A stretch of DNA of 64,000 bases, taken from NCBI RefSeq assembly GCF_017498565.1, contig NZ_CP071794.1, positions 1,781,001-1,845,000 of the forward strand, written 5' to 3'. The notes beneath the pieces are model-generated. The model was not told the DNA's origin and ran no database searches. It was given only the letters and a program-made list of their open reading frames with translations. Shown piece by piece: positions 9,419-21,012 of this stretch (position 1 is the stretch's first letter; each line of letters opens with the position of its first letter). This DNA is from Parasphingorhabdus cellanae (GTDB lineage: Bacteria; Pseudomonadota; Alphaproteobacteria; Sphingomonadales; Sphingomonadaceae). Both the position numbers and the translations under genes were made by a program.

Positions 9419-9421
9419 GGC

Positions 9422-10006
9422 TCAACCCTCCCGATAGGCCAGCGCACCGCGCACGGCGCGCGCGACCTGGCGGCTGGACCGGCGCAACTGGTCGGGTGCG
9501 CTGCCCTGGCCATGGTCGGATATGTTGATGGTCAGGCGGATATTGGGCTGCGCCGGTGCTGTACCGGCAGACGGCTCAATCCGCCCGGCCGCGGTCGGCA
9601 CGAACAGCTCCGGCCCCTGCTCGCCCACCATATAAGCGCGCCCGCCCGTCACCGGCCCGCCGGTCGCGCGACCCGGCAGGCCCAGAGCCGCGCCCAAGAG
9701 CGACGTTCCAAGGCCCAGCAATCCGCCACCCGATCCGCCGCCGCCGAACAGGCTGCCAATACCGCTATTCACTGCGGCGCTGGCAATATCATCCATCACC
9801 GACAGAGCGACGCTTTTGAGATCCTGAAAATCCAGCGACCCGCGCCGGATCGCCCGGCTGAGGCCGGTTTCGAGTGCAGAACCGGCGCGTTCCATTCCGC
9901 GCGCCAGCGGCCCGTCAAGCTGTGCCTTCATATCCGCGACATCTTTTGCAAATCCGGCGGTATCGGCGCGCACGGCGATGACCAGACGTTCGATTTCTTC
10001 ATCCAT
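9422..10006 (-). CDS. GTA gp11-like tail tape measure protein
   Basis: 194-residue short tape measure protein. The N-terminus is an amphipathic helix region with MDEEIERLVIAVRADTAGFA followed by a long coil, then a glycine-rich block, and a conserved ATGGPVTGGRAYMVGEQGPE segment seen in tape-measure C-termini. The length fits the short tail of GTAs (RcGTA gp11 is about 220 residues). Its ATG overlaps the end of the tail chaperone gene by 8 bp. A role in setting tail length is inferred from family and position. Confidence 0.9.
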   Translation of the reverse strand: MDEEIERLVIAVRADTAGFAKDVADMKAQLDGPLARGMERAGSALETGLSRAIRRGSLDFQDLKSVALSVMDDIASAAVNSGIGSLFGGGGSGGGLLGLGTSLLGAALGLPGRATGGPVTGGRAYMVGEQGPELFVPTAAGRIEPSAGTAPAQPNIRLTINISDHGQGSAPDQLRRSSRQVARAVRGALAYREG

Positions 10007-10214
10007 GGTTGAGAGTGTCTTTCAGTGTTTGGAGTTGGCTTTGGGTGAGCGGCGGGGCGGTTTGATGACCCGGACCAGCACCGGACAAAGCGGTCAGAAC
10101 AGCCGCCAATTCAGCAGGCGTGGCGTTCCAAAATTGATCGGGCGTCCAGCCAAGAGCGGCGGGTATCAGCCCAGCGAGATGGGCGGCAGAGGTGCGGAAA
10201 TTATTGATCATCAT
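9999..10214 (-). CDS. GTA gp10.1-like tail assembly chaperone
   Basis: About 71 residues, of the rcc01693/phage tail assembly chaperone type: a hydrophobic helix with LAGLIPAALGWTPDQFW, then the conserved ATPAEL segment. These proteins coat the tape measure during tail assembly. The open frame reaches 10238 but the tandem ATGs at 10214/10211 are the likely start. The upstream 400 bp is filled by repeats, so this is the first gene of the repeat-free late block. Confidence 0.8.
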   Translation of the reverse strand: MMINNFRTSAAHLAGLIPAALGWTPDQFWNATPAELAAVLTALSGAGPGHQTAPPLTQSQLQTLKDTLNHG

Positions 10215-10282
10215 TATGCTCAAATCTGAGTGCAACATGCTCCGCGCTGGATGCGAAGCACAGGTAGGATTGCCCCATTCAT

Positions 10283-10452
10283 CCTCTCCCCTTGAGGGAG
10301 AGGACAGGGGAGCTTGCGGCCCTGGCCGCTAGCGAAACTTGGAGAGGGGGGAGCGGTTATCGTTAAAGGTGGCGGCTCCCCCTTCCCCTCTCTAAGACTT
10401 GCTAGGCAGCAAGCTGCCAAGCCAAGTCTTTTCTCTCCCTCAAGGGGAGAGA
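10283..10452. repeat. Family B palindromic element, copy 1
   Basis: Begins with CCTCTCCCCTTGAGGGAGAGG and ends with the reverse complement, each end being its own hairpin. Internal hairpins GCGGCC-CT-GGCCGC and AAGACTTG...CAAGTCTT are visible. It forms a composite with the A half-element that follows and fills the gap between gp10 and gp10.1. Confidence 0.9.
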
Positions 10453-10485
10453 AAAACAGGCGAAACCGCAACGCTGCCACCAAAC

Positions 10486-10611
10486 CGACGCGAAGCGGAG
10501 GCAAGGCCGACCGGCCGCCCGAGCTTATGCGAGGAAAGCCAAGGCGACGGATGTCGCCGCCCGGCGCCTGAGGTCTTAAAAAAAACTCCCGGCGTTTGAG
10601 GGCCCAATAAA
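10486..10611. repeat. Family A palindromic element, right half (copy A1)
   Basis: Contains the right half of an A element (CGAAGCGGAGGCAAGGCCGACC through CGCCCGGCGCCTGAGG), followed by a second degraded end, GGCGTTTGAGGGCCC. It is joined to B copy 1 by a linker also seen next to B copies 2 and 3. It lies directly after the stop codon of the gp10-like gene. Confidence 0.88.
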
Positions 10612-10621
10612 AACTTCCCCT

Positions 10622-10936
10622 TCACCGCCCCGCCAGTATCTGCCGCAGCACGATCTTCAGCACCGGCGTCACGCTTGCCAGCCCCAGCGCCAGCATCGCT
10701 TCGCCAAAATCCTCGCGCGTCAGACCATCGGGCCGGTCCCGGATCACGTGCCACAACAGCCCCGCGACTTCGGCCAGGGTCAGCTGCCCATTCGCCGCTC
10801 GCTCGACCAGATCGAACAGCGATCCCAGCTCTTCCTCCGCCGCGACGAGCGCAGCAAAACTCGGCCGCAGCACCAGCTGCTCCCCCGCCACCGTCAATTC
10901 CGCTTCGCCGCGCAATGCATTCGCCCGCTCAGACAT
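10622..10936 (-). CDS. GTA gp10-like tail assembly chaperone (gene transfer agent family protein)
   Basis: 104 residues with the hallmark of GTA gp10: a small beta-hairpin (GEAELTVAGEQLVLRPSFAAL) followed by AAEEELGSLFDLVERA and a helical C-terminus. It probably works with gp10.1 as a tail assembly chaperone pair. It overlaps the major tail protein gene by 8 bp. An A element end follows the stop by about 10 bp. Confidence 0.9.
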   Translation of the reverse strand: MSERANALRGEAELTVAGEQLVLRPSFAALVAAEEELGSLFDLVERAANGQLTLAEVAGLLWHVIRDRPDGLTREDFGEAMLALGLASVTPVLKIVLRQILAGR

Positions 10937-11336
10937 GGGACACCGCGCCGGAGCTTTCGAGGCTCAGCGTATAGCTGCGCTCGCCATTATAATCGCCGGC
11001 ATAATCAAGCCGCGTGACCAGAAAATCGCCGCGCATCCGCTCGCCGCTTTCAAAGCTCAGCTCATAAGCGTCGATCAACCCGGCGAGCGCATGGTTCTTG
11101 ACCCGGATTTCGGCATCCGACCCGGTAAACACCCCGGCGCCCGACACCGACACCGAGCGCACACCCGCGCCCGACAACAGCTCGCGCCAGCCGCCGCTAT
11201 CCTTGTTCGTAATCGCGACCGGCTCGCCATTGACCGACAATTGCGTCGTGCGCAGGCCGGCAATGGTGGAATAGGTCGCTGGGTCCTGCCCGTCGCCGAT
11301 TTTAAGGAGAAAGGCGCTGCCTTTTTCTGCTGCCAT
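10929..11336 (-). CDS. GTA gp9-like major tail (tube) protein
   Basis: 135-residue major tail protein of the TIGR02126 type: it opens MAAEKGSAFLLKIGDG, contains GLRTTQLSVNGEPVAITNKDSGGWRELL split over the next strands, and ends in SYTLSLESSG. It polymerises to form the tail tube. I chose the ATG at 11336 because of the AAGGAACC ribosome site seven bases upstream; the longer frame to 11378 starts in repeat-flanking sequence. The gp10 gene overlaps its end by 8 bp. A 430-bp gap filled by repeats separates it from gp8. Confidence 0.93.
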   Translation of the reverse strand: MAAEKGSAFLLKIGDGQDPATYSTIAGLRTTQLSVNGEPVAITNKDSGGWRELLSGAGVRSVSVSGAGVFTGSDAEIRVKNHALAGLIDAYELSFESGERMRGDFLVTRLDYAGDYNGERSYTLSLESSGAVSHV

Positions 11337-11370
11337 AGTTGGTTCCTTTTTTTGTGGGTGATTTTTATTG

Positions 11371-11500
11371 GACCTCAAGCGCCGGGGAGTTTTTGTTTTG
11401 ACCTCAGGCGCCGGGCGCGGGCATCCGCCCGCTTGGCTTTCCTCGCATAAGCTCGGGCGCGCGCCATCTGATTCTTGGCGCGCTTGCCTCCGCTTCGCGT
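11371..11500. repeat. Family A palindromic element, left half (copy A2)
   Basis: A duplicated left terminus (CCTCAAGCGCCGGGG, then about 25 bp later CCTCAGGCGCCGGGCG) followed by the left half of the A body up to GCGTCACTCC. It is joined by a linker to B copy 2, forming the inverted orientation of the composite seen at 10283-10611. Confidence 0.88.
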
Positions 11501-11548
11501 CACTCCGTTGGCAGGCTTGAGGTTGTATACGGCGGTGGCCCCTTTCAT

Positions 11549-11720
11549 CCTCTCCCCTTGAGGGAGAGGACAGTGAAGCTTGCGGCCCTGGCCGCTAGCG
11601 GAACTTGGAGAGGGGGGAGCGTCCATCGCTGACCTTAGCGTTTGCCGCCTTACCCCTCTCTAAGACTTGCTAGGCAGCAAGCTGCCAAGCCAAGTCTTTT
11701 CTCTCCCTCAAGGGGAGAGA
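11549..11720. repeat. Family B palindromic element, copy 2
   Basis: Full-length B element with the same terminal hairpins and internal AAGACTTGCTAGGCAGC hairpin as copy 1. It lies between gp9 and gp8 of the GTA cluster. Confidence 0.9.
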
Positions 11721-11751
11721 ATTGGTGTGTTGAGCACAGGTACAATCTCTC

Positions 11752-11778
11752 GTCATCCTGAACTTGGTTCAGGATGAC
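11752..11778. repeat. Family C short palindrome, copy 1
   Basis: GTCATCCTGAAC-TTG-GTTCAGGATGAC, a 12-bp stem. The same sequence with a slightly different loop is at 32745. It overlaps the last codons and the stop codon of the DUF3168 gene. Confidence 0.92.
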
Positions 11779-12173
11779 GATGAGAGGACCCGCGCGCGAT
11801 ATTCGATCAATCCGCTCCACGGGCTCACCGCGCTGCGCAATATCCGCGTCCGGCGGAAATCGAACGTCACGATCTGCCAACCCTCCGGCTCCGGCACACC
11901 ATTTTCCAGCGCCGCTTCCGCCAACGCCATCACCCGGTGCAGCCGTGCGGCACTCATGCCATCGTCGTGCACGCTGAGCGCCAAGCTCAATTCCCGGCCC
12001 GTCCCGCCCTTGAAGCTCCAGTCCAGCGCGGCACCCGTCGCCAAGGCGATATAGGGAAAGGCAGCGCGCGCGGGTGGGCCGTCATAAATGCCGCTGATTT
12101 CATCCAGCAACGGCTGGTGCGCATTCATCGCCACAACCAGCTCTCGCTGCACTGCTTCAAGCGCGCTTGTCAC
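11769..12173 (-). CDS. GTA gp8-like tail terminator protein (DUF3168)
   Basis: 134-residue tail-completion protein of the DUF3168 family; the segment PARAAFPYIALATGAALDWSF and the LSLALSVHDD strand are typical. It caps the tail and joins it to the head. The last codons (a run of four serines) and the TGA are supplied by the family C palindrome, so the native C-terminus appears to have been replaced by repeat sequence. The start overlaps the stop of the preceding 72-residue gene. Confidence 0.92.
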   Translation of the reverse strand: MTSALEAVQRELVVAMNAHQPLLDEISGIYDGPPARAAFPYIALATGAALDWSFKGGTGRELSLALSVHDDGMSAARLHRVMALAEAALENGVPEPEGWQIVTFDFRRTRILRSAVSPWSGLIEYRARVLSSSS

Positions 12174-12388
12174 CGGACACCCCGCATCAAAAACGCGACA
12201 TCGCGCAGACTGTTATTTTCGATAATTTCCGCTCCAAGACCGCGACCGGCAACCACAATGCCATCACGCGTTTCTGCGACCGAAACATCCTCAGGTAATT
12301 CCTGGTCCAGCGCCGCCTGCATTTCCGCTTTGGTTTTTTGCAGCTCCCTTGCTGCCACCGCCTCTGCCTTGCGTATTAGATTCTCCAT
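12170..12388 (-). CDS. Small conserved hypothetical protein in GTA head-tail joining block
   Basis: 72 residues, acidic and mostly helical, opening MENLIRKAEAVAARELQKTK. It sits between the gp7-like and gp8-like genes, with TGATG overlap on one side and ATGA on the other, so it is translationally coupled to both. RcGTA has no separate gene at this position that I can name. The middle (LPEDVSVAETRDGIVVAGRG) resembles the first strands of HK97-gp10/minor tail proteins, but the chain is too short for that domain. Function unknown. Confidence 0.72.
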   Translation of the reverse strand: MENLIRKAEAVAARELQKTKAEMQAALDQELPEDVSVAETRDGIVVAGRGLGAEIIENNSLRDVAFLMRGVR

Positions 12389-12732
12389 CACCGTTTCTCC
12401 TCGGCTTTCAGGATAGTTTTCGGAATGAATCGATGATCGGCAGACACAGAGCCGACAACCATCTTCCGGTCGCCCCAAGCCAGATGATCGCCAACGCGAA
12501 TGGCATCGGTTTGCCGCAGCGTGAACCGCCACCGCGGCAATGCCGACCGGCTGTTGCCAAGCGCCTCCAAGCCCGTCCCCAGCGGTTCTGCGGAAGCCCA
12601 GAATTCGCCAATCGGCACGCTTTGGTTGGTCGCAGAGCCGATGGCGTCACGCTGTGAAGATGGCCGCGCGATGCTTATACGTTCGCGCAAAAGCCCGCTA
12701 AATTCATGCCCGGTAAAATTTGACCTGCTCAT
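12388..12732 (-). CDS. GTA gp7-like head-tail stopper protein
   Basis: 114-residue head closure/stopper protein of the phage head-tail joining family: FSGLLRERISIARPS at the start and WRFTLRQTDAIRVGDHLAWGDRK in the second half. I chose the ATG at 12732 because it overlaps the TGA of the gp6-like gene as ATGA; the frame is open further upstream but that stretch is inside gp6. It closes the portal channel after packaging, by family. Confidence 0.85.
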   Translation of the reverse strand: MSRSNFTGHEFSGLLRERISIARPSSQRDAIGSATNQSVPIGEFWASAEPLGTGLEALGNSRSALPRWRFTLRQTDAIRVGDHLAWGDRKMVVGSVSADHRFIPKTILKAEEKR

Positions 12733-13292
12733 GCCAACCTCATCCGGCGATGGGGGCGCCATAAAGCTGTCACCGCGCTCGGCGGCGGCGCAGCATCGAG
12801 GCCATCGCGATGGGAATAGAGATAGCCCGCCAGCCGGACCACGCCCTGCCGCAAGGTCGTCGGCACTGTCATCCAATCCACTGCCAGCCCGGCATTATAG
12901 GTGACCGCGATGCGCTGAAAGTTGCTCGCCGCACGCAGCTTAACCCAACCGACACCGTCCCCATCGATATCAATCGCATAGTCGTTGGCGGGCAACGCCC
13001 TGGCGTTACCATCTGGTGCAATAGCTTCCACAGACGTGATCGCTTGCACCGGGCGTCTCTTCAGTTTCTGCCAGTCTGCCCGCGCCGGTATCCGGTCACA
13101 TAGCGACCGGACTATCAACATTTGTCCGGTGAAATTCTCACACAGATGCGCGGCGCTGCTGGCGAACCGGGCAATGGCAGCATCATCTTCGCCATGATCA
13201 AGGCGGAGGAAATCTTTGACCTCCTGGATTAACTCTACCGGCAATGCGGGCAGATCTTTGGGGGGAAGCTCACGGGTCGGGCGTCCTTTCAT
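12729..13292 (-). CDS. GTA gp6-like head-tail adaptor (connector)
   Basis: Up to 187 residues. Family signature of the phiE125 gp8/head-tail connector type: EVKDFLRLDHGEDDAAIARFASSAAHLCENFTG, then KRRPVQAITSVEAI and a C-terminal LRQGVVRLAGYLYSHRDG helix. It links the portal to the tail. The start at 13292 is uncertain; internal methionines are absent until late in the chain, so it is likely near this point. The 400 bp upstream is occupied by repeats. Confidence 0.88.
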   Translation of the reverse strand: MKGRPTRELPPKDLPALPVELIQEVKDFLRLDHGEDDAAIARFASSAAHLCENFTGQMLIVRSLCDRIPARADWQKLKRRPVQAITSVEAIAPDGNARALPANDYAIDIDGDGVGWVKLRAASNFQRIAVTYNAGLAVDWMTVPTTLRQGVVRLAGYLYSHRDGLDAAPPPSAVTALWRPHRRMRLA

Positions 13293-13383
13293 TGGGGGAT
13301 GGGGTGGGGTGGTGTGGGAGGGTTTGTTATTTTACCTCAGGCGGTAGTGTCGATGTTGTACACAATGGTGGCCGCTCCTTCAT

Positions 13384-13554
13384 CCTCTCCCCTTGAGGGA
13401 GAGGACAGTGGAGCTTGCGCCGACTGGCGCTAGCGGAACTTGGAGAGGGGGGAGCGGTTATCGCTAACCACAGCGTTTGCCGCCTACCCCTCTCTAAGAC
13501 TTGCTAGGCAGCGAGCTGCCAAGCCAAGTCTTTTCTCTCCCTCAAGGGGAGAGA
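13384..13554. repeat. Family B palindromic element, copy 3
   Basis: Full B element between the capsid gene and gp6, same termini as the other copies, with a variant CTTGCGCCGACTGGCGCTAGCG internal hairpin. The left flank has ACCTCAGGCGG, a remnant of an A terminus. Confidence 0.9.
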
Positions 13555-13585
13555 AGAACCGGCGAAACCTCAAGCTTACCACCAG

Positions 13586-13677
13586 TCCGACGCGCAGCGG
13601 AGGCAAGCGCGACTGCGCGCCCGAGCTTATGCGAGGAAAGCCAAGGCGACGGATGTCGCCGCCCGGCGCTTGAGGTT
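13586..13677. repeat. Family A palindromic element, right half (copy A3)
   Basis: Right half of an A element ending CGCCCGGCGCTTGAGG, twelve bases past the stop codon of the capsid gene. The linker to B copy 3 (ACCTCAAGCTTACCACCAG) matches, on the other strand, the linker next to B copy 2. Confidence 0.88.
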
Positions 13678-13689
13678 AATCAAACACAA

Positions 13690-14859
13690 TCAACTCACAC
13701 TAAAGCGCATCAGCTTAATCGCTTCGCTGTTCATCACCTGACCACCGACGCGCTTGGTCGCATAGAAATGCACAAACGGTTTGTTGGTGAACGGGTCGCG
13801 CAGGATGCTCGTCGCGCTGCGCTCTGCGATCAGATAACCGGCGCGGAAATTGCCGAAGGCGATGGACAGGCTGTCCGCTGCCACATCCGGCATATCCTCG
13901 GCCTCGACCACCGGATAGCCGAGCAGCATATCGGGTTGTCCAGACGCCAGAGACGCCTGCCACAAAAACGCGCCATCGGCGGTCTTGAACTTGCGGATCT
14001 GCGCCAGTGTGGCGCTGTTCATCACAAAGCTTGCGCCCTGCCGGTAGGCGGGTTTCAGCGTATGGACCAGGTCAACCAGCGCATCCTCGCCATCCGCGCC
14101 GGCAAAGCCGCCTGCCGCGCCCGACGGCACATATTGCAGCGAACCGAACGCGCGCGCGCCGTCCGGCTCGTCCGTCACCGGCGCGTTGAGAAAGCCGCGC
14201 GGTTGGTTGACCCCGGAACCGCCAACAAAAGCGGCCCCCTCGGCCTGCGCAAATTCGCGGGCAATCTCATCGGCCAGCCAGGCCTCGACATCAAAGGCGG
14301 CATCATCGAGCATCCCCTGCGACGCCGCCGGGTTGGCATAAAGCTCTCCGGTCGGCGGCGCGATTTCGTTGAAATTGGGCGTGTCGGTTTCGGGCCGTCC
14401 CGCCGTCTCGCTGACCCAGCCCGATGGCGTGCCGCCATGGGTGACGAGCTTGCGATAGCCCGCGCTGCCGGTCTGCACAACGGTGGCGATGGACCGGATC
14501 GGCGAGATGTCTTTCAGCGTCCGCCCGATCAGCGCGTCAATCTCCTGCGGTACGGCAAAGCCGCCTTCGGGGCCAGACGCGCCGGAAAAGCTTTTCAGCT
14601 CGACCCCTGCATGATCGCCCCGGCGGAGATATTTTGTGACGAAATCCTGTGCGGCGGCGGAAGGCGCCATGCCTTTTACGCCGTCCGCGTTACCGGCCAG
14701 AACGGGCCGCGCCGATGCTTTCGAAATGTCGTCCATCTGACTTTTCAGGCCATCAACATCCGTGCGCAATACGGCGATATCCTCGGCCATCAGCACGGTG
14801 TCGAAACTGTCCTCCAACGTATCGGCTTTCGTTTCGAGAGGGGTATTGGAAATGTCCAT
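13690..14859 (-). CDS. GTA gp5-like major capsid protein (HK97 family)
   Basis: 389-residue HK97-fold major capsid protein. Residues 1 to about 100 form a coiled-coil delta domain (MDISNTPLETKADTLEDSFD, then LRTDVDGLKSQMDDISK), which is removed by the protease in RcGTA. The rest shows the HK97 core motifs: YLRRGDHAGVELKSFSG, GGFAVPQEIDALIGRTL, and the C-terminal RVGGQVMNSEAIKLMRFSVS. The start at 14859 has an AAGGAAT ribosome site; the open frame further upstream is not coding. An A half-element sits just past the stop codon. Confidence 0.96.
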   Translation of the reverse strand: MDISNTPLETKADTLEDSFDTVLMAEDIAVLRTDVDGLKSQMDDISKASARPVLAGNADGVKGMAPSAAAQDFVTKYLRRGDHAGVELKSFSGASGPEGGFAVPQEIDALIGRTLKDISPIRSIATVVQTGSAGYRKLVTHGGTPSGWVSETAGRPETDTPNFNEIAPPTGELYANPAASQGMLDDAAFDVEAWLADEIAREFAQAEGAAFVGGSGVNQPRGFLNAPVTDEPDGARAFGSLQYVPSGAAGGFAGADGEDALVDLVHTLKPAYRQGASFVMNSATLAQIRKFKTADGAFLWQASLASGQPDMLLGYPVVEAEDMPDVAADSLSIAFGNFRAGYLIAERSATSILRDPFTNKPFVHFYATKRVGGQVMNSEAIKLMRFSVS

Positions 14860-14987
14860 GTTATTCCTTTCTTGGGGGTGATGAAATCTCGTAGATGAAA
14901 AAAACCACCTAAAATCAGGCGGCTGAAGCGAATTCAGAATGAATATTGGGGTCGACAAAAACCGGCTCCGGCGATAGCCATGGAGCC

Positions 14988-16106
14988 ATGCATTATTTGA
15001 ACAGCTTGGCAGCGCTGGCTGCTCTTTTCCTGGCCGCGTTTTTTCCGGCGGCACCTCTGGCCGCGCAAGCGGAAAAGCCGGCACCGCAACAAACAACCGA
15101 ACCGACCACCCAAGGCGCTCCCCCGGTAATCCCGCGACCGCGCCGTCCGCCCAACCCGATGCTCAGCCATGACATTCCGCCCGAAAAGCGCGGTGATCTG
15201 TCCGACTGCGCCAGCCGCGACAAACGGTCGATCGAATTTGTCGCCAAAAACTGCTGGCCGGTCCTGCAGGCTTATAAGACCTTGATCCGACTGCGCGGTG
15301 CGAGCAAGTCAGCCATTGCCAAACAGGAACGCCAGGCACCCGATGCGATAGCTACCAAAAACCGCGCCCTATCACTAGCCAACCAGCTGCACTCACAGCA
15401 TGTCGGTGGCCGCTGGCCGATGCAAAATTATGTCGCGCAAAGCGGCTATCAACCGCTGATCGCTATGCTGAAAGCATTTGGCGATCATGAGGCCGCCCTC
15501 GCCGCGCATGATGATTATATTGCCTTGCAGGGACGCACGTTGATGAACAATCCGACATTCCTGCGCGGCTATCTCTATAAAGACAAAAGCGAATATCTCC
15601 TTGAACTGGGCCGCCGTGATGAAGCGCTGGCCAATTTCACCGCCGCAACCGCGCTTGCCGACCGCGAGCCGATCGACATGATATCCAATGTCGAACATGC
15701 CGAGCTGATCGCCTATGATGCGATCATCGCGAAAGACGAGGATCGCGCGCTGGGCGCCATTAATATGTTCCTCGACAAAACCGAGCGCCACAGCCGCCAC
15801 CAGGATTTGGTCTATTATCCGATCCGGATATTGAAAATCTACATATTGGCGGGCCGGAAAGATTATGATGGCGTGCTGGCCGAGTTAAAGACTTTCAACA
15901 GTCTGTCGCGCCGCAATTTGTGCCAACATGACAAGCCGATAGAATTTTACTTCCCGCAAGTTGTCTCTCCCACCCAAAGCGACCCGCGCATCGCCGCCGA
16001 GCTGAAAGATTTCGGCTGCAGCGAGGCGATCATTGCCGGATTGGATGACAATATGGCCGATGGTGTCCCAGCTTCGGAAGGGGTCAAACCGCTGCCGCCG
16101 CGATAG
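14988..16106 (+). CDS. Secreted TPR-like hypothetical protein inserted in the GTA cluster
   Basis: About 372 residues on the strand opposite to the GTA genes, between capsid and protease. Signal peptide MHYLNSLAALAALFLAAFF ending AAPLAAQA, then a proline-rich stretch, then a largely helical body with TPR-like pairs (around GDHEAALAAHDDYIALQGRTL and LGRRDEALANFTAATALADREP). Four cysteines in two spaced pairs. I start at the ATG at 14988; a TTG at 14946 would precede the signal peptide. The gene is not part of RcGTA and interrupts a gene pair (protease-capsid) that is adjacent in nearly all GTAs, so it is an insertion. It ends 18 bp before an A repeat. Confidence 0.7.
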   Translation: MHYLNSLAALAALFLAAFFPAAPLAAQAEKPAPQQTTEPTTQGAPPVIPRPRRPPNPMLSHDIPPEKRGDLSDCASRDKRSIEFVAKNCWPVLQAYKTLIRLRGASKSAIAKQERQAPDAIATKNRALSLANQLHSQHVGGRWPMQNYVAQSGYQPLIAMLKAFGDHEAALAAHDDYIALQGRTLMNNPTFLRGYLYKDKSEYLLELGRRDEALANFTAATALADREPIDMISNVEHAELIAYDAIIAKDEDRALGAINMFLDKTERHSRHQDLVYYPIRILKIYILAGRKDYDGVLAELKTFNSLSRRNLCQHDKPIEFYFPQVVSPTQSDPRIAAELKDFGCSEAIIAGLDDNMADGVPASEGVKPLPPR

Positions 16107-16123
16107 TAGGTGTTTTTGTTTGA

Positions 16124-16325
16124 CCTCAAGCGCCGGGCGCGGGCATCCGCCCGCTTGGCTTTCCTCGCATAAGCTCGGGCGCGCAGTCGCGCTTGCCTCG
16201 CTGCGCTCGGACAATCCTCTAAAGTTTGGCACCGGACCGACGCGAAGCGGAGGCAAGGCCGACCGGCCGCCGCGCCTTATGGCGCGATAGCCAAGCGGGC
16301 GGATGCCCGCGCCCGGCGCTTGAGG
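16124..16325. repeat. Family A palindromic element, full copy A4
   Basis: About 202 bp from CCTCAAGCGCCGGGCG to CGCCCGGCGCTTGAGG. The spacer core (CGGACAATCCTCTAAAGTTTGG) is almost the same as in copy A9 at 39948. It supplies the C-terminal codons and the stop of the prohead protease. Confidence 0.92.
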
Positions 16326-16723
16326 TCCAATAAACAATGCACCCGAGCCAAGGGCTGCATCGGACAGGTCACCAGCGAGATCTCCGCGACATCGAGAGCA
16401 AGTAACGCACGCGGCTTTTGGCCCGCTGCTTGCTGCACGCGATAGCCGAAGCTGAGCCCCTTGATCGCGCTGTTTTTCAACATAGCTGCCGCTTCCCGCC
16501 CGGCTCTGGTAGCGGTTGAAAGACTACCGATGACCCGCAGGCCGCGCTGATCTTCACGGGCATAGCTGATGCTGCCAATGCGTTGGTCCGGCCTGTGCTG
16601 CCAAAGCAAAGGGAGTGATTGTCCCCGGGCCAGCGCACCGAACGCGCCGGGCCGGATTATGTCCCCGCCCTTGTCGATGCGGTTGAAAATCGCGGCATAG
16701 CCAGCGAAGCGGATGGCGCTCAT
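16277..16723 (-). CDS. GTA gp4-like HK97 prohead protease (repeat-derived C-terminus)
   Basis: 148 residues. U35-type capsid maturation protease that removes the capsid delta domain: FAGYAAIFNRIDKGGDII, LPLLWQHRPDQRIG with the catalytic-type His, KGLSFGYRV with the Ser, and AEISLVTCPM. The start at 16723 overlaps the preceding gene as ATGA. Family members normally end soon after PLARVH; here the reading frame continues for about 19 residues (LLDLKRRARASARLAIAP) entirely encoded by repeat A4, and the stop is in the repeat. Confidence 0.92.
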   Translation of the reverse strand: MSAIRFAGYAAIFNRIDKGGDIIRPGAFGALARGQSLPLLWQHRPDQRIGSISYAREDQRGLRVIGSLSTATRAGREAAAMLKNSAIKGLSFGYRVQQAAGQKPRALLALDVAEISLVTCPMQPLARVHCLLDLKRRARASARLAIAP

Positions 16724-17028
16724 GTAACCAGATTCCCGAACCCCAACCGCATCGCGATACCGATCAACAGCAGTGCCAGTGCGCCGCGAATGATCCAGGT
16801 AATCGCCGCTTTCCAAGCGCTCGCCTTGGCATCGCGCCAGGCGCGGAGCAACTCGCGCAGTTCGTCGAGATCATCCTGCGCCTTGTGGTCGGCGAGACCC
16901 AGCCGGTCGAGCACGCGTTCCGCGCCGCTATCGGTCGCTTCCTCCACAATCGCGCGGAGGGTAACCAGATCTGCCCCATCGCCTTCCGCCTGCGCCACCA
17001 GGCGGGCGAGCATTTCTTCGTTTAGCAT
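16720..17028 (-). CDS. GTA gp3.5-like small protein (DUF6127 type)
   Basis: 102 residues: an acidic coiled N-terminal two-thirds (MLNEEMLARLVAQAEGDGAD; DDLDELRELLRAWRDAK) and one C-terminal membrane helix (ITWIIRGALALLLIGIAMRL). It sits between portal and protease, the position of RcGTA gp3.5, and overlaps the protease start by ATGA. I assign the DUF6127 name from memory of sphingomonad annotations. A role in head formation is inferred from position. Confidence 0.7.
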   Translation of the reverse strand: MLNEEMLARLVAQAEGDGADLVTLRAIVEEATDSGAERVLDRLGLADHKAQDDLDELRELLRAWRDAKASAWKAAITWIIRGALALLLIGIAMRLGFGNLVT

Positions 17029-17052
17029 GTGTAATGATTCCTTTTTTTGATT

Positions 17053-17362
17053 CCCTCAAGCGCCGGGCGCGGGCATCCGCCCGCTTGGCTTTCCTCGCAT
17101 AAGCTCGGGCGCGCGGTCGCGCTTGCCGACGCGATGCGTCGGTTCAGCGCGACACTAAACGCTTCGTTTGAGACCATATAACCGAGCGCAGCGAAGGCAA
17201 GGCCGACCGGCCGCCGCGCCTTATTGGCGCCTAGCCAAGGCGACGGATGTCGCCGCCCGGCGCCTGAGGTTCAATAAAAACTCCCGCGCCCGGCGCCTGA
17301 GGTTAAAAAGAAGACGCCCGCGCCCGGCGCTTGAGGTTCAATAAAAAACGCGCCTGAGGGCT
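17053..17362. repeat. Family A palindromic element, full copy A5 with multiplied right ends
   Basis: A full A element (17053-17269) followed by three further right termini in tandem (ends at about 17304, 17336 and 17362), each with CGCC(C)GGCGC(C/T)TGAGG or a degraded form and a TCAATAAAAA-like tail. It occupies the gap between portal and gp3.5. Confidence 0.9.
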
Positions 17363-17380
17363 CAATAAAGACTCCTCCTT

Positions 17381-17565
17381 CCTCTCCCCTTGAGGGAGAG
17401 GACAGTGAAGCTTGCGGCCCTGGGCTTGTCCAGGGGCGCTAGCGAAACTTGGAGAGGGGTGGGCGGCACACGCAAAGGGCTGCGATTGTCGCTCCCCCCC
17501 CTCTCTAAGACTTGCTAGGCAGCAAGCTGCCAAGCCAAGTCTTTTCTCTCCCTCAAGGGGAGAGA
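17381..17565. repeat. Family B palindromic element, copy 4
   Basis: B element with a slightly longer internal hairpin (GGCCCTGGGCTTGTCCAGGGGC). Its right end stops exactly at the stop codon of the portal gene. Confidence 0.9.
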
Positions 17566-17566
17566 A

Positions 17567-18703
17567 TCATAAACCCAACATCGCCCGCTTTTCCTCCGGC
17601 GACAGAAAATCCGCCGCGCTCACTTGGCTCCACAACCGTTCGCGGTCCTCGGACAGCGCCGGGATCTGATCGCGGTCCACCGCCAGACCCGCATCCTCTC
17701 CCCAAGCCCTCAGCGCACCCGACAGCCCGTCCAAAATCTTCCCTGCTAGCGGCAATATCGTCAGCCGCCACAGCGCGCGATTGGCCTCGCGGTAGTTCGC
17801 ATAGCTATTATCCCCCGGCAGGCCGAGCAGCATCGGCGGCACACCAAAGGCCAGCGCAATTTCCCGCGCGGCGGCCGCTTTCAGCGCGACAAAATCCATA
17901 TCCGCCGGGGTCATGCTCATGCTTTGCCATTTCAGCCCGCCTTCGAGCAGCATCGGCCGCCCCGCATTGCCCGAACCAGCAAAGCTCGCCTCCATCTCGG
18001 CCTTGAGCCGGTCAAACTGATCCGCCGACAGCGCCGATCCATCCGGGCCGGGATCGAACACCAACGCCCCTGAGGGCCGCGCGGCATTGTCGAGCAATGC
18101 CTTGTTCCACTGCGCCGCCGCATTGTGCACCGCCACCGCCTTGGCCGCGGCGCCAAGACAGCCGAGGCCATAATGGTCGTCGGTGGGGTGAAAGGCCTTG
18201 ATGTGGATGATCGCCGGACGGCCCATCGCATCCTGCGCGGCCAAGCGGGTCTGATGCTCGCCAGCCCGATAGGCATAAGCGGCCGGCCAGCCCTTTGCAT
18301 CCGGCTCGATCGTGATCCGGTCGGGGCGCAGGGCGAAAAGCTCGACCGGCTGGTCGTCAGCGCCGCCCAGTACCTGCACATAAGCATTGCCGTGCAGCAA
18401 CAGATGCGCCGCGATGGTTTCGAGCAGAGACTGGCCCGCGCTGGTGGCGTTGACCAAGGTCGCGACGCTATCCTCCATCGGCAAGAGCGGCGCACTACCG
18501 ATGCCCTCAGCGACGATCCGCACGGCGCGCTGCGCGACGGGGTTATTGATGTAAGCGTCGCGCACCTGTCCTTCGTAAGAATAGGGCGCCGCGCCGGTGA
18601 AAGAAGCACCGCCATAGGTACCAATATAGCTGCGCCCCAAAGGCGGCCGTGATTGTCCACCCCCGCCCTTGAAGGCGAGGGATAGGGTTTCCCAAAATTT
18701 CAT
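17567..18703 (-). CDS. GTA gp3-like portal protein (HK97 family)
   Basis: 378-residue portal ring subunit through which DNA enters the capsid. Motifs: YINNPVAQRAVRIVAEGIGS near residue 50, LLLHGNAYVQVLGG, LFALRPDRI, DHYGLGCLGAAAKAVAVHN and the C-terminal FGVPPMLLGLPGDNSYANYREANRALW signature spread over the last third. Normal length for the family. The TGA sits at the boundary with B copy 4, which may have been inserted exactly at the stop. It is separated from the terminase gene by an A element. Confidence 0.96.
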   Translation of the reverse strand: MKFWETLSLAFKGGGGQSRPPLGRSYIGTYGGASFTGAAPYSYEGQVRDAYINNPVAQRAVRIVAEGIGSAPLLPMEDSVATLVNATSAGQSLLETIAAHLLLHGNAYVQVLGGADDQPVELFALRPDRITIEPDAKGWPAAYAYRAGEHQTRLAAQDAMGRPAIIHIKAFHPTDDHYGLGCLGAAAKAVAVHNAAAQWNKALLDNAARPSGALVFDPGPDGSALSADQFDRLKAEMEASFAGSGNAGRPMLLEGGLKWQSMSMTPADMDFVALKAAAAREIALAFGVPPMLLGLPGDNSYANYREANRALWRLTILPLAGKILDGLSGALRAWGEDAGLAVDRDQIPALSEDRERLWSQVSAADFLSPEEKRAMLGL

Positions 18704-18726
18704 GTTTTTTGATTCCTTTGTTTATT

Positions 18727-18968
18727 CCCTCAAGCGCCGGGCGCGGGCATCCGCCCGCTTGGCTTTCCTCGCATAAGCTCGGGCGCGCGGTCGCGCTTGC
18801 CTCCGCTTCGCGTCGGATCAGCGCGACCTTTTACGCCACGTCTATGAGCATCGTCCGAGCGCAGCGAGGCAAGGCCGACCGGCCGCCGCGCCTTATTGGC
18901 GCGTAGCCAAGGGCCCGGATGGGCCCGCCCGGCGCCTGAGGTTCAATAAAAAACGCGCTTGAGGTTCA
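18727..18968. repeat. Family A palindromic element, full copy A6 plus extra end
   Basis: Full A element (to 18941) plus one additional right end (CGCGCTTGAGGTTC) at 18955-18966. The TTCAATAAAGACT tail of the extra end encodes the last codons of the terminase and its stop codon. Confidence 0.9.
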
Positions 18969-20315
18969 ATAAAGACTCCCCACCCGCGGCTTGCGCCGCT
19001 TCCCCAGCATCAATTCCGTCAGCGCATAGACCAGCGCGTCGGCACGGTCCGGGGACCGCCCCGGCCCTTCATAACCGCCGCCGATTAGCAGCCCGCACAG
19101 CTCGTCCTCCAGCCGCGGGAAAGCGCCCGCATGCAGCACCCGGCCCGCCTCGTACAGCGCCGCCACCGGTTCCGCCCTAGCCACCTTGCCGCGCGACGCG
19201 TGGACCAGCCGCACCGGTAGCGAAACATTTGTCGCATGCAGCACCGATTGGACCATCGCTCCGCCCTGATTGGCTTCGGCAATCACCCGGTCCGCGCCCC
19301 AATTACGCGCCGCTTTTGCAACCGCCCGCGCCCATGTTTCGGGGCTGGCTTTTTCGGCGCTGCAATCGGCCAGAATCACCGCCTTGTTATCGGTCCGCAA
19401 TCCCGCGACGATAATCCCGCAGGCATCACCGGTTTGTGAAGCCGGAGGATCGACGCCGATCACGATGCGGACCGCGTTCGCCGCATCGTCGGCCGCCACC
19501 CGGCACGCCTCCAGCATTGCCCGGCTCCACAGCGCGCCTTCCAGCTCCTCGATCAGCTCGCCGTCCAGCTCCTGCCGCCCCAGCCGCGTGCCGCCATAAT
19601 CCGCCTCCATCACCTTGATAAATTCACCAGGCAGGTTTGCGACATTATCCGTCGTCCCGCCCCGCGTAATCACCACGCCTCTGGTCTGGTAATCGCCTTT
19701 CACGAGATTCCGCACCAATGCCACCGGCCTTGGCGTGGTCGTCGCGGCAATTTTCGGCGCATGCCCCAGCCGCAAACCCATTTTCAGATTATCCCACGCC
19801 GCCAGCGCCTGCCCGCTATTATTCGCCCATTTGGCGATTTCATCGCACCAGCTATGGCTGTGCTGCGGCCCGCGCAGGCCCTCTGGTTCCGCCGCCGAAT
19901 AGAGATAAGCCTCCGCACCGCTCGACCAGCGCAGCCGTTTGAGCGAAGGCTCCCAAAGCGGGCGCGTATCATCGGGTGCAATCGACAACAAACCGCTTTC
20001 CCCCTCGACCATCACCATCCGTGTCTCGGCAAAATTCGCGCCGACCAGCGCAAAGCGCGCGCTGCCATCGGCTTCACAAATTTCGCGGACCCATTCGGCG
20101 CCCGCACGGGTCTTGCCAAAGCCGCGGCCCGCCATGATCATCCACACCGTCCAGTCGCCGGTGGGCGCGAGCTGTTCCTGGCGTGCCCATTTGTGCCAGC
20201 TCGCTTCATATTCGAGGCGGGTCTCACTATCCATGCAACCCAGGAAAAATGCCCGATCATCGTCATCTTCAATCTGGTTGATTTGACGCGCCGTGATCAC
20301 ATCATGCGTCATCAA
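18966..20315 (-). CDS. GTA gp2-like large terminase
   Basis: 449-residue DNA-packaging motor. The ATPase part has the Walker A AGRGFGKTRAGAEW and the Walker B-type SWCDEIAKW; a coupling motif TTTPRP follows. The nuclease part has the first acidic residue in IGVDPPAS and the last in DRADALVYALTEL. In GTAs this enzyme cuts host DNA by headful packaging. The final codons (SLY) and the TGA lie in an A-element terminus. Its start overlaps the gp1-like gene by 14 bp. Confidence 0.95.
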   Translation of the reverse strand: MMTHDVITARQINQIEDDDDRAFFLGCMDSETRLEYEASWHKWARQEQLAPTGDWTVWMIMAGRGFGKTRAGAEWVREICEADGSARFALVGANFAETRMVMVEGESGLLSIAPDDTRPLWEPSLKRLRWSSGAEAYLYSAAEPEGLRGPQHSHSWCDEIAKWANNSGQALAAWDNLKMGLRLGHAPKIAATTTPRPVALVRNLVKGDYQTRGVVITRGGTTDNVANLPGEFIKVMEADYGGTRLGRQELDGELIEELEGALWSRAMLEACRVAADDAANAVRIVIGVDPPASQTGDACGIIVAGLRTDNKAVILADCSAEKASPETWARAVAKAARNWGADRVIAEANQGGAMVQSVLHATNVSLPVRLVHASRGKVARAEPVAALYEAGRVLHAGAFPRLEDELCGLLIGGGYEGPGRSPDRADALVYALTELMLGKRRKPRVGSLY

Positions 20316-21012
20316 TCACGCGAACCCTTTTGCCATTTTTCTCCCCTTCGGCATGGCTTTCACCATTATCGGCACCACTATCGAACCCGGCATCGAACCC
20401 GCTATCGATCCCGCCTTCGTCTCCGGCATCGTCTCTGGCATCCCCATGCGCCGCACCCGCCTGCTTTTTGCGCCGCTTCTCCGCCTGATAGGCGCGCAAG
20501 CGGACGTTGATCTTCTTGAGCTTCTCGTCGAGCGTATCGCGCACCGGTTCCGGCTCCGCCGCCAGTTCGGCCCGCGCCGCGCGGACCAGCGCCACCGACT
20601 CCTTATGCAAGCGCAGCAATTGCAGCCCGGTTTTGTGGTCATAGTCGCGCACGGTTGCAACATGCTTGCCATGGTAATAAATCTTGCGCTCCACCCCGTG
20701 GCGGGCGCGCTCCAGCATTTCCATTTCCAGCAGCTCGTAACCGGCGGCCAGCGCCTTTAACCAGGCGGCGGCGAAATCAGGGTCAGTGTCTCTCCATAAA
20801 TAAAGCGTGCTATTGGCAATATCGGCCACGTCTGCCGATTGCTTGATGCTCGACGTGATCGCCAGATGTTCCAGAAAAGCGCGTTTCTTGGCCATCTTGT
20901 GCCCGGCTCGGGGATCGCCTTCATGCTCCACCTGTTCATCCGGTTGGGCATCCGGTTGGGCATCCTTTTGTGCATGCGGCTGTTGTTTCCTGTTTTCCAT
21001 GGTTTCAGACAT
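20302..21012 (-). CDS. GTA gp1-like small terminase / DNA-binding protein
   Basis: 236 residues from the ATG at 21012, which has a GGAAGG ribosome site. Residues 1-45 are low-complexity (a QPDAQPD repeat). The centre has a helix-turn-helix: KKRAFLEHLAITSSIKQSADVADIANSTLYLWRDTDPDFAAAW in outline. A charged coiled segment follows, and the C-terminus is a Gly/Asp-rich repeat (GFDAGFDSGADNG) ending in a basic RVRVIDD. Position before the large terminase and the HTH suggest a small terminase subunit. In RcGTA, gp1 was long missed for its low similarity. The frame to 21093 has a poor start. Confidence 0.8.
   Translation of the reverse strand: MSETMENRKQQPHAQKDAQPDAQPDEQVEHEGDPRAGHKMAKKRAFLEHLAITSSIKQSADVADIANSTLYLWRDTDPDFAAAWLKALAAGYELLEMEMLERARHGVERKIYYHGKHVATVRDYDHKTGLQLLRLHKESVALVRAARAELAAEPEPVRDTLDEKLKKINVRLRAYQAEKRRKKQAGAAHGDARDDAGDEGGIDSGFDAGFDSGADNGESHAEGEKNGKRVRVIDDA

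What the first reader, a model, noticed from the sequence alone, without database searches (positions are those of the whole stretch)
11752..18968. Repeats supply stop codons and C-termini to three GTA genes
The terminase ends SLY-stop within the TTCAATAAAGACT tail of an A end; the prohead protease ends with about 19 residues and a stop encoded by A4; the DUF3168 protein ends in four serines and a stop from C copy 1. The portal stop directly touches B copy 4. Such precise 3'-end placement suggests insertion at or near stop codons, or selection that tolerated only these positions.
Basis: seen in the sequence. Interest (0 to 1): 0.7.

Follow-up and report, generated by a model that had tools for sequence, protein, structure and literature searches.

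The report
Hairpin repeats abutting phage-like gene ends
In this bacterium and its relatives, many gaps between the genes of a domesticated virus (a gene transfer agent) hold unrelated DNA hairpin repeats that sit right after a gene and sometimes even supply its last amino acids and stop signal, which hints that hairpins in these gaps are tolerated or wanted.

Summary
Terminase (SLY-TGA), prohead protease (19-residue tail, TAA) and the DUF3168/gp8 protein (SSSS-TGA) end inside repeats; the portal stop touches repeat B. Orthologues lack these residues: 0 of 33 terminases, 1 of 30 proteases (the sister genome, which shares the insert), 0 of 29 gp8 (eight genomes counted twice).

Genome-wide these repeats lie mostly against gene 3' ends. 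But insertion exactly at the stop is not shown, and for terminase it is contradicted: the nine nearest relatives keep a TAG there; the window lost about 11 nt including it and now uses the repeat's TGA. Stop capture looks like a by-product and has precedent in GTAG-REPs.

The larger finding: the GTA operon of this clade is loaded with hairpin repeats. Of tandem spacers of 70-700 nt, 34 of 66 in GTA clusters fold far below shuffles, against 9 of 98 in random stretches. Unrelated families occupy the same slots in different species, and a post-capsid hairpin found widely in Sphingomonadales is absent in the window, where A and B sit instead. Best reading: retained or tolerated intercistronic hairpins. 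No function was tested.

The parts
18966..20315 (-). GTA large terminase (TerL); last residues SLY and TGA lie in repeat A
   Evidence: Pfam Terminase_6N/6C; C-terminus compared with relatives
18718..18980 (.). Repeat A in the TerL/portal spacer, with an extra A-end fragment at its TerL side
   Evidence: repeat search and nhmmer A model; right edge extended by eye
17567..18703 (-). GTA portal protein; TGA abuts repeat B
   Evidence: Pfam Phage_portal; ends MLGL* as in the sister L111
17378..17566 (.). Repeat B copy touching the portal stop
   Evidence: nhmmer B model, the repeat finder D3/D10
17042..17377 (.). Repeat A (17042-17281) followed by stacked A-end fragments (17282-17377)
16720..17028 (-). 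DUF6127 protein, overlaps the protease start by 4 nt (no repeat at this junction)
   Evidence: Pfam DUF6127; gap -4
16277..16723 (-). Prohead protease; last 19 residues and TAA come from repeat A
   Evidence: Peptidase_S78 matches residues 5-129 of 148; tail shared only with L111 among 30 loci
16112..16339 (.). Repeat A supplying the protease tail
13690..14859 (-). Major capsid protein
   Evidence: Pfam Phage_capsid
14903..14924 (-). Terminator-like hairpin plus T run just upstream of the capsid gene
   Evidence: consensus scan only; 19 terminator-like sites in 9400-21000 against 13.2 (sd 3.9) in shuffles
13323..13686 (.). A end - B - half A in the capsid/gp6 spacer, where other Sphingomonadales have the post-capsid hairpin
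   Evidence: no match of hairpin model R1 in the window at E<=1
11769..12173 (-). gp8 / DUF3168 (tail completion) protein ending SSSS-TGA
   Evidence: Pfam Tail_completion_gp17; relatives end RVLK*, RVLKV* and similar
11751..11779 (.). Palindrome C that supplies the gp8 end
   Evidence: pattern search, 4 places in the own genome with up to 3 mismatches
11389..11722 (.). Half A (11389-11523) and B (11545-11722) in the gp8/tail-tube spacer
10279..10586 (.). B (10279-10455) and half A (10472-10586) downstream of gp10

Best explanation
The repeats are several unrelated families of hairpin-forming, REP-like elements that, in this clade, have repeatedly colonised the slots between the stop codon of one GTA gene and the ribosome-binding site of the next. 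Elsewhere in the genome they also lie mostly against 3' ends, probably because that position spares start signals. The captured stops and C-terminal tails (SLY, the 19-residue protease tail, SSSS) are by-products: small deletions or insertions near the ancestral stop let the frame run into an element whose edge is rich in stop triplets. I think the hairpins are retained, or at least unusually well tolerated, because the GTA mRNA works with structured spacers: as intercistronic terminators/attenuators or as mRNA 3'-end protectors. Shown: placement, absence of the tails in repeat-free orthologues, loss of the ancestral TerL stop in the window, enrichment in GTA spacers, different families in the same slots, local stem covariation. 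Inferred: any effect on transcription or mRNA, the mobility of A, and the order of events for the protease and gp8.
For: C-termini absent in repeat-free orthologues. Ancestral TAG kept in the 9 nearest TerL relatives, lost in the window. 3'-end placement: own genome 24 of 33 vs 3 of 33 at 5' ends; relatives outside GTA 19 vs 2 of 26, 1 of 26 in a divergent spacer; 23 of 29 tandem non-GTA units closer to the 3' end. GTA enrichment: 25 of 93 listed A units against 0.21 expected in 14 genomes, ten genomes with at least one and four with none (list truncated, GTA-derived query); with a non-GTA query my hand merge gives 18 of 55 units in seven genomes. Folding: 34 of 66 GTA spacers z<-5 vs 9 of 98 random (Fisher p 1.9e-9). 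Clade against loci L049-L110: portal/DUF6127 spacer of 50 nt or more in 18 of 20 vs 1 of 53; folded spacers with z<-3: TerL/portal 15 of 16 vs 9 of 39, gp8/tail tube 15 of 17 vs 3 of 13. At least 9, 9, 4 and 8 label changes at four junctions. Post-capsid hairpin: 12 of 13 pairs changed on both sides, 0 of 500 shuffles. A-arm mini-hairpin perfectly paired in 117 of 131 ends, about 40 after shuffling.
Against: Nothing here measures RNA or protein. A has no U tract after the full hairpin; the mini-hairpin tail CTTGGCT.. holds 4.5 T in 12 on average. Counts are not independent: species are related and some A copies outside the GTA look orthologous. Single slots can be short in clusters whose other GTA genes were found (L112, L116, L120, L123), so no one hairpin is required; L115 is short at both measured slots, but its locus lacks gp6 to gp10. 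TerL/portal spacers of 50 nt or more are common outside the clade too (44 of 60). B beside A and sloppy stop capture fit plain accumulation. Ten of 39 relatives gave no GTA protease match (some of them incomplete genomes), so the GTA may be weakly selected.
Confidence: 0.6

Rival explanations
1. Neutral landing pad: selfish hairpin repeats insert widely; the GTA is silent and dispensable most of the time, so its spacers tolerate them. Position is set only by removal of inserts that break genes or start signals. No hairpin does anything.
For: Several unrelated families, B beside or inside A, stacked A-end fragments; 10 of 39 relatives without a GTA protease match; portal matches cut short in L037 and L038, gp10 cut short in L035, gp6 to gp10 not found in L115.
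Against: In most loci the GTA frames are intact while spacers fill; random stretches of the same genomes show few such spacers (9 of 98); where the post-capsid hairpin is gone in the window, L111 and L113, another hairpin repeat is there.
Confidence: 0.35
2. Terminator/antitermination: hairpins keep the late operon silent unless an antiterminator (GafZ type) rides with RNA polymerase, as reported for Caulobacter, where three 150-bp GC-rich repeats with inverted repeats terminate transcription inside the GTA cluster.
For: Published Caulobacter terGTA (PMC11150451, passages read). A DUF6456 gene in the own genome beside a helix-turn-helix gene; by comparing coordinates it lies within about 3-10 kb of the GTA protease in seven genomes of other families. 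A-arm modules score as terminator-like.
Against: That DUF6456 marks GafZ is recalled; no call shows it, and no paper of the library with that word was listed. Five genomes with a GTA protease match have no DUF6456 match (G006, G027, G033, G036, G039), among them the sister G006, loaded at four of five junctions. Several genomes without a protease match keep the gene. Tails are poor in T.
Confidence: 0.22
3. Target-site specificity: the elements insert preferentially into 3'-end or terminator sequences, so proximity to stops reflects insertion, not selection.
For: 3'-end placement outside the GTA, also in long spacers; 17 of 42 non-GTA A units convergent and 1 divergent.
Against: No Y1 transposase of the RAYT type (PF01797) in the genome; I identified no target motif (none was searched for systematically); one own copy of B (700532-700695) lies inside a called reading frame.
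Confidence: 0.2
4. The repeat-encoded tails are themselves selected as new C-termini of GTA proteins.
For: The protease tail is kept in frame in two species, window and L111.
Against: The tail is just the conserved A end; it lies outside the Peptidase_S78 match; tails after ARVH vary among relatives.
Confidence: 0.05

Closest known systems
GTAG-tagged REP elements (PMC3733652, passages read)
   Same: Palindromic, mostly extragenic, near or overlapping coding regions; termini often provide a TAG stop to flanking ORFs
   Different: No GTAG tag at the A end, about 4-23 units per family in the own genome, and no RAYT transposase found there
terGTA of Caulobacter crescentus (PMC11150451, passages read)
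   Same: GC-rich repeats of about 150 bp with imperfect inverted repeats inside a GTA cluster
   Different: There: three direct copies after the first gene, shown to terminate. Here: elements of several families in most late-gene spacers, function untested
REPIN/BIME-type inverted REP pairs (recalled)
   Same: A and many D copies are pairs of small hairpins in inverted orientation
   Different: A is about 225-250 bp with exchangeable mini-stems; the two arms carry the same stem allele in only 15 of 59 elements
Intercistronic hairpins that set protein ratios in operons, such as the Rhodobacter puf operon (recalled)
   Same: Hairpins between genes that are probably cotranscribed, one directly after the capsid gene
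   Different: No expression data here

Membership tests
REP / REPIN elements | Palindromic, extragenic repeats | tested here: met
   Own-genome units lie between called genes or at their 3' edges except one B copy inside a called frame; arms self-complementary
REP / REPIN elements | GTAG (or CGTC) tag at one end | tested here: not met
   A end consensus is about GGAGTCTTTATTTAACCTCARGCGCC. B and C were not examined for a tag
REP / REPIN elements | RAYT (Y1) transposase in the genome | tested here: not met
   No PF01797 match at E<=0.001; the control rang in 5 of 14 genomes
REP / REPIN elements | High copy number (usually over 100 per genome, abstract of PMC2817692 in the listing) | tested here: not met
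   About 21-23 A units, about 11 B, 4 C places in the own genome
terGTA-type terminator | Inside the GTA cluster, GC-rich, inverted repeats | tested here: met
terGTA-type terminator | Stops transcription, relieved by GafZ | not testable with these tools
   Needs a reporter assay
Rfam RNA families | Match above the curated score | tested here: not met
   Window 9000-21000: eight matches at E<=1, all below their curated score; none at E<=0.5 for L122:8200-8600 with the post-capsid hairpin
Alphaproteobacterial (RcGTA-type) GTA cluster | Terminase, portal, protease, capsid, connector and tail genes in order | tested here: met
   Pfam hits in order, including the GTA-gp10 family

The most novel reading that the evidence does not exclude
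GTA late operons of this clade need, or are silenced by, structured spacers, and each slot is refilled with whatever hairpin repeat is at hand: function kept, sequence replaced. The repeats would be a convergent set of GTA regulators (terminators bypassed during induction, or mRNA segmenters setting capsid-to-tail ratios), and the widespread post-capsid hairpin the original of the kind.
Probability: 0.3. Interest if true: 0.8.

Novelty: new variant of a known kind. Interest (0 to 1): 0.55.

Why it matters
If hairpins are kept in these slots whatever their sequence, repeats that are usually called junk serve as spare parts in controlling a domesticated virus, and a natural set of about 20 related genomes with different hairpins in the same places makes this testable. 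Even on the neutral reading, GTA spacers are a hot spot for short repeats (published work describes GTA clusters as far from repeat regions, there meaning long repeats over 800 bp: PMC9836097, passages read), and the terminase is a worked case of how a repeat takes over a stop codon.

Tried and rejected
Rfam on the window GTA region: eight sub-threshold matches, mostly microRNA families on B. RAYT transposase as the mover of A: none found. Classical intrinsic terminators: A's outer ends are T-rich before and A-rich after the hairpin, the wrong way round; the inner modules look terminator-like, weakly. GTA-specific 3'-end preference: not upheld, since in GTA spacers the element fills the gap and is as close to the next start as to the last stop. 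Element D as a GTA specialist: not upheld for the own genome (18 matches, none in the GTA; copies in the GTA were seen for G006, G010 and G016 in a truncated list). GafZ as a sure explanation: held back because five genomes with a GTA protease match lack DUF6456. Literature: a search for papers holding all six of 'gene transfer agent', 'hairpin', 'intergenic', 'capsid', 'operon', 'terminator' found none; by titles and abstract starts, searches listed no paper on hairpin repeats in sphingomonad GTA spacers. That covers only the held open-access library. After the filing check I recounted: the placement test was rerun with two tandem units (one B, one C) that one search had left out, and the antitermination rival was lowered from 0.25 to 0.22 because five genomes, not one, lack DUF6456.
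Full report
What was checked. The window is G000:C1:1781001-1845000 of a 3.78-Mb single-contig genome. The finding lies in a GTA gene cluster on the minus strand; Pfam gives, in order, terminase, portal, DUF6127, prohead protease, capsid, connector, head completion, gp8, tail tube and GTA-gp10. Named relatives with a similar terminase include Parasphingorhabdus marina and Sphingorhabdus sp. 109. Eight loci are the same contigs as G-handle genomes, judged by equal contig lengths.

The four placements are real: TerL ends SLY-TGA in an A tail, the protease has a 19-residue tail and TAA from A, gp8 ends SSSS-TGA in palindrome C, and the portal TGA abuts B.

Test against orthologues. I read the C-termini of orthologues in 34 loci (eight genomes are present twice). 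None of 33 other terminases ends in SLY; most end PRVRV, PRVR, PRVRI or PRVRW-like, a few otherwise. Of 30 other proteases one, L111 (G006, the sister genome), has the A-coded tail; the others end shortly after the equivalent of VH with varied residues. None of 29 other gp8 proteins ends in four serines. The portal ends normally.

How the TerL stop changed. The nine other members of the window's starred ten-genome clade (L111-L114, L116, L032-L035; tree) all keep TAG right after the codons for R-V or R-I; in L112, L032 and L034 an A end (GGAGTCTTTATTGA or similar) follows that TAG by a few nt. The window runs from GTG straight into GGGAGTCTTTATTGA: about 11 nt including TAG are missing, and the TGA of the A end is used. 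For gp8, L111, L112 and L114 end on the TAA of an A end, while L113, L116 and others keep their own stop just before one. For the protease the insert took the place of the last few codons in both window and L111, in a frame whose A end reads TTGGA and has no stop, hence the long tail. Of 155 A ends seen in fetched loci, 99 have a stop triplet in the last 8 nt before the core CCTCA. GTAG-REPs are already reported to provide TAG stops (PMC3733652, passage).

Placement rule. In the own genome I listed 33 A, B and C units (from and nhmmer) with genes called by a codon model: 24 lie within 25 bp of a 3' end, 3 within 25 bp of a 5' end. I fetched 20 stretches around A copies outside the GTA in G006, G011, G013, G014, G017, G019, G020 and G021, a choice from the best-scoring listed copies: of 26 copies 19 are within 25 bp of, or overlap, a 3' end and 2 a 5' end; 15 are in tandem, 10 in convergent and 1 in divergent spacers. 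In GTA loci of relatives the copies are as close to starts as to stops (10 and 11 of 22), because they fill the gap. Over 29 tandem non-GTA units the mean relative distance from the 3' end is 0.26 (0.5 expected), 23 closer to the 3' end; own A units alone (9) are weaker, 0.32, p 0.03. One B unit inside a called frame was left out of that test. The copies are not independent: several sit at what look like orthologous places in several species.

GTA as hot spot. In 14 genomes with a GTA, 25 of 93 listed A units lie in the cluster, 0.21 expected; ten genomes have at least one, four have none. That list came from a GTA-derived query, was truncated, and the first look was capped for several genomes. 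A query with a copy from elsewhere in the own genome, over seven genomes at E<=1e-10, gave 55 units after I merged neighbours by hand, 18 of them in the GTA (for G016 40 of 46 first-look candidates were scored). In the own genome B has 4 units in or just downstream of these genes among about 11. Element D has GTA copies in G006, G010 and G016 but none in the own GTA.

Folding control. Using one gene caller on 14 GTA clusters and 20 random 20-kb stretches from nine genomes, tandem spacers of 70-700 nt fold with z below -5 in 34 of 66 against 9 of 98, and below -3 in 46 of 66 against 14 of 98 (20 shuffles each; Fisher tests). Some GTA spacers with z near 0 are probably genes that the caller missed.

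Slots and turnover. Of 94 loci measured, 20 distinct genomes form the clade: 14 by handle, 6 (L032-L035, L040, L044) by the tree. L037, L038, L041, L043 and L124, similar but incomplete, were left out. The portal/DUF6127 gap is 50 nt or more in 18 of 20 clade genomes but in 1 of 53 measured loci among L049-L110, where it is mostly a 4-nt overlap. TerL/portal spacers of 50 nt or more are common in both (16 of 20 and 44 of 60), but those folded have z<-3 in 15 of 16 against 9 of 39; for gp8/tail tube it is 15 of 17 against 3 of 13. The same slots hold A, D, E, mixtures or other hairpins in different species. On a tree of four GTA proteins the fewest label changes are 9 (TerL), 9 (portal), 4 (capsid) and 8 (gp8) (composite labels inflate these, unclassified spacers were dropped, and three outgroup rows were set as short by hand). 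G023 (L115) is short at both slots that could be measured, but its fetched locus lacks gp6 to gp10, so its GTA may be decaying.

The post-capsid hairpin. Between capsid and gp6, 37 of 47 folded spacers among L049-L110 have z<-3. I aligned 35 of 53 repeat-free spacers, chosen for a clear stem: 93.2% of cells pair, 12 of 13 pairs have changes on both sides, 0 of 500 shuffles as high. The stems were picked by a hairpin score, so the share paired is high by construction; the changes on both sides are the stronger evidence. TCCCC occurs in 67 of 74 spacers, duplicates and repeat-bearing spacers included. A covariance model finds the hairpin in L119, L033 and L075 (E about 1e-6 or better) but not in window, L111 or L113, whose spacers hold A or A with B, nor in the five random stretches; L035 and L106 gave only weak hits, L112, L089, L099, L049 and L115 none, so its reach is limited. 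L119 and L033 are not an independent test: L119 is in the model's alignment and L033 is close to L032, which is. So in the window lineage one hairpin probably gave way to another.

Structure inside A. Each typical A end carries a small hairpin, five stem letters - ATCC - five letters, with five common stem alleles; 117 of 131 are perfectly paired, about 40 after shuffling partners. The two arms of one element carry the same allele in only 15 of 59, so the local hairpin, rather than the long palindrome, seems to be what is kept. Copies are related, so this is not a count of events.

Mechanism. In Caulobacter three GC-rich 150-bp repeats inside the GTA cluster are a strong terminator that GafZ helps polymerase pass (PMC11150451, passages). 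A similar role here is attractive but unproven: the own genome has a DUF6456 protein (GafZ-like from memory only) next to a helix-turn-helix gene, and this gene lies near the GTA protease in seven genomes of other families (coordinates), but five genomes with a protease match lack it, the sister G006 among them. Segment-wise mRNA protection and plain tolerance remain open.

Verdict.

Noticed in passing
capsid/gp6 spacers, e.g. L122:8366-8422, L119:9291-9347: A covarying hairpin, usually with a TCCCC-containing loop, lies after the capsid gene in many Sphingomonadales GTA clusters; no Rfam match in L122.
   Followed up: partly
window 15159-16106 (+): An extra gene without Pfam match lies on the opposite strand between protease and capsid; in the rows shown some relatives have gaps of about 960-1420 nt there, others about 34-122 nt.
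   Followed up: no
window 13323-13686, 11389-11722, 10279-10586; G000:C1:2414991-2415322: Repeat B sits inside or against half copies of repeat A, suggesting nested insertion.
   Followed up: partly
G000:C1:2399415-2415322 (L131, L132): A second group of A and B units; one A lies between a subtilase gene and a DXP synthase gene and seems to have orthologues in several species.
   Followed up: partly
L143:3129-4299: A DUF6456 gene next to a helix-turn-helix gene, far from the GTA here but near it in several genomes of other families.
   Followed up: partly
G000:C1:700532-700695 (L138): A copy of B lies inside a called reading frame of about 342 codons.
   Followed up: no
L037, L038, L035, L115: GTA genes look cut short or missing (portal in L037 and L038, gp10 in L035, gp6 to gp10 in L115), so the GTA may be decaying there.
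   Followed up: no
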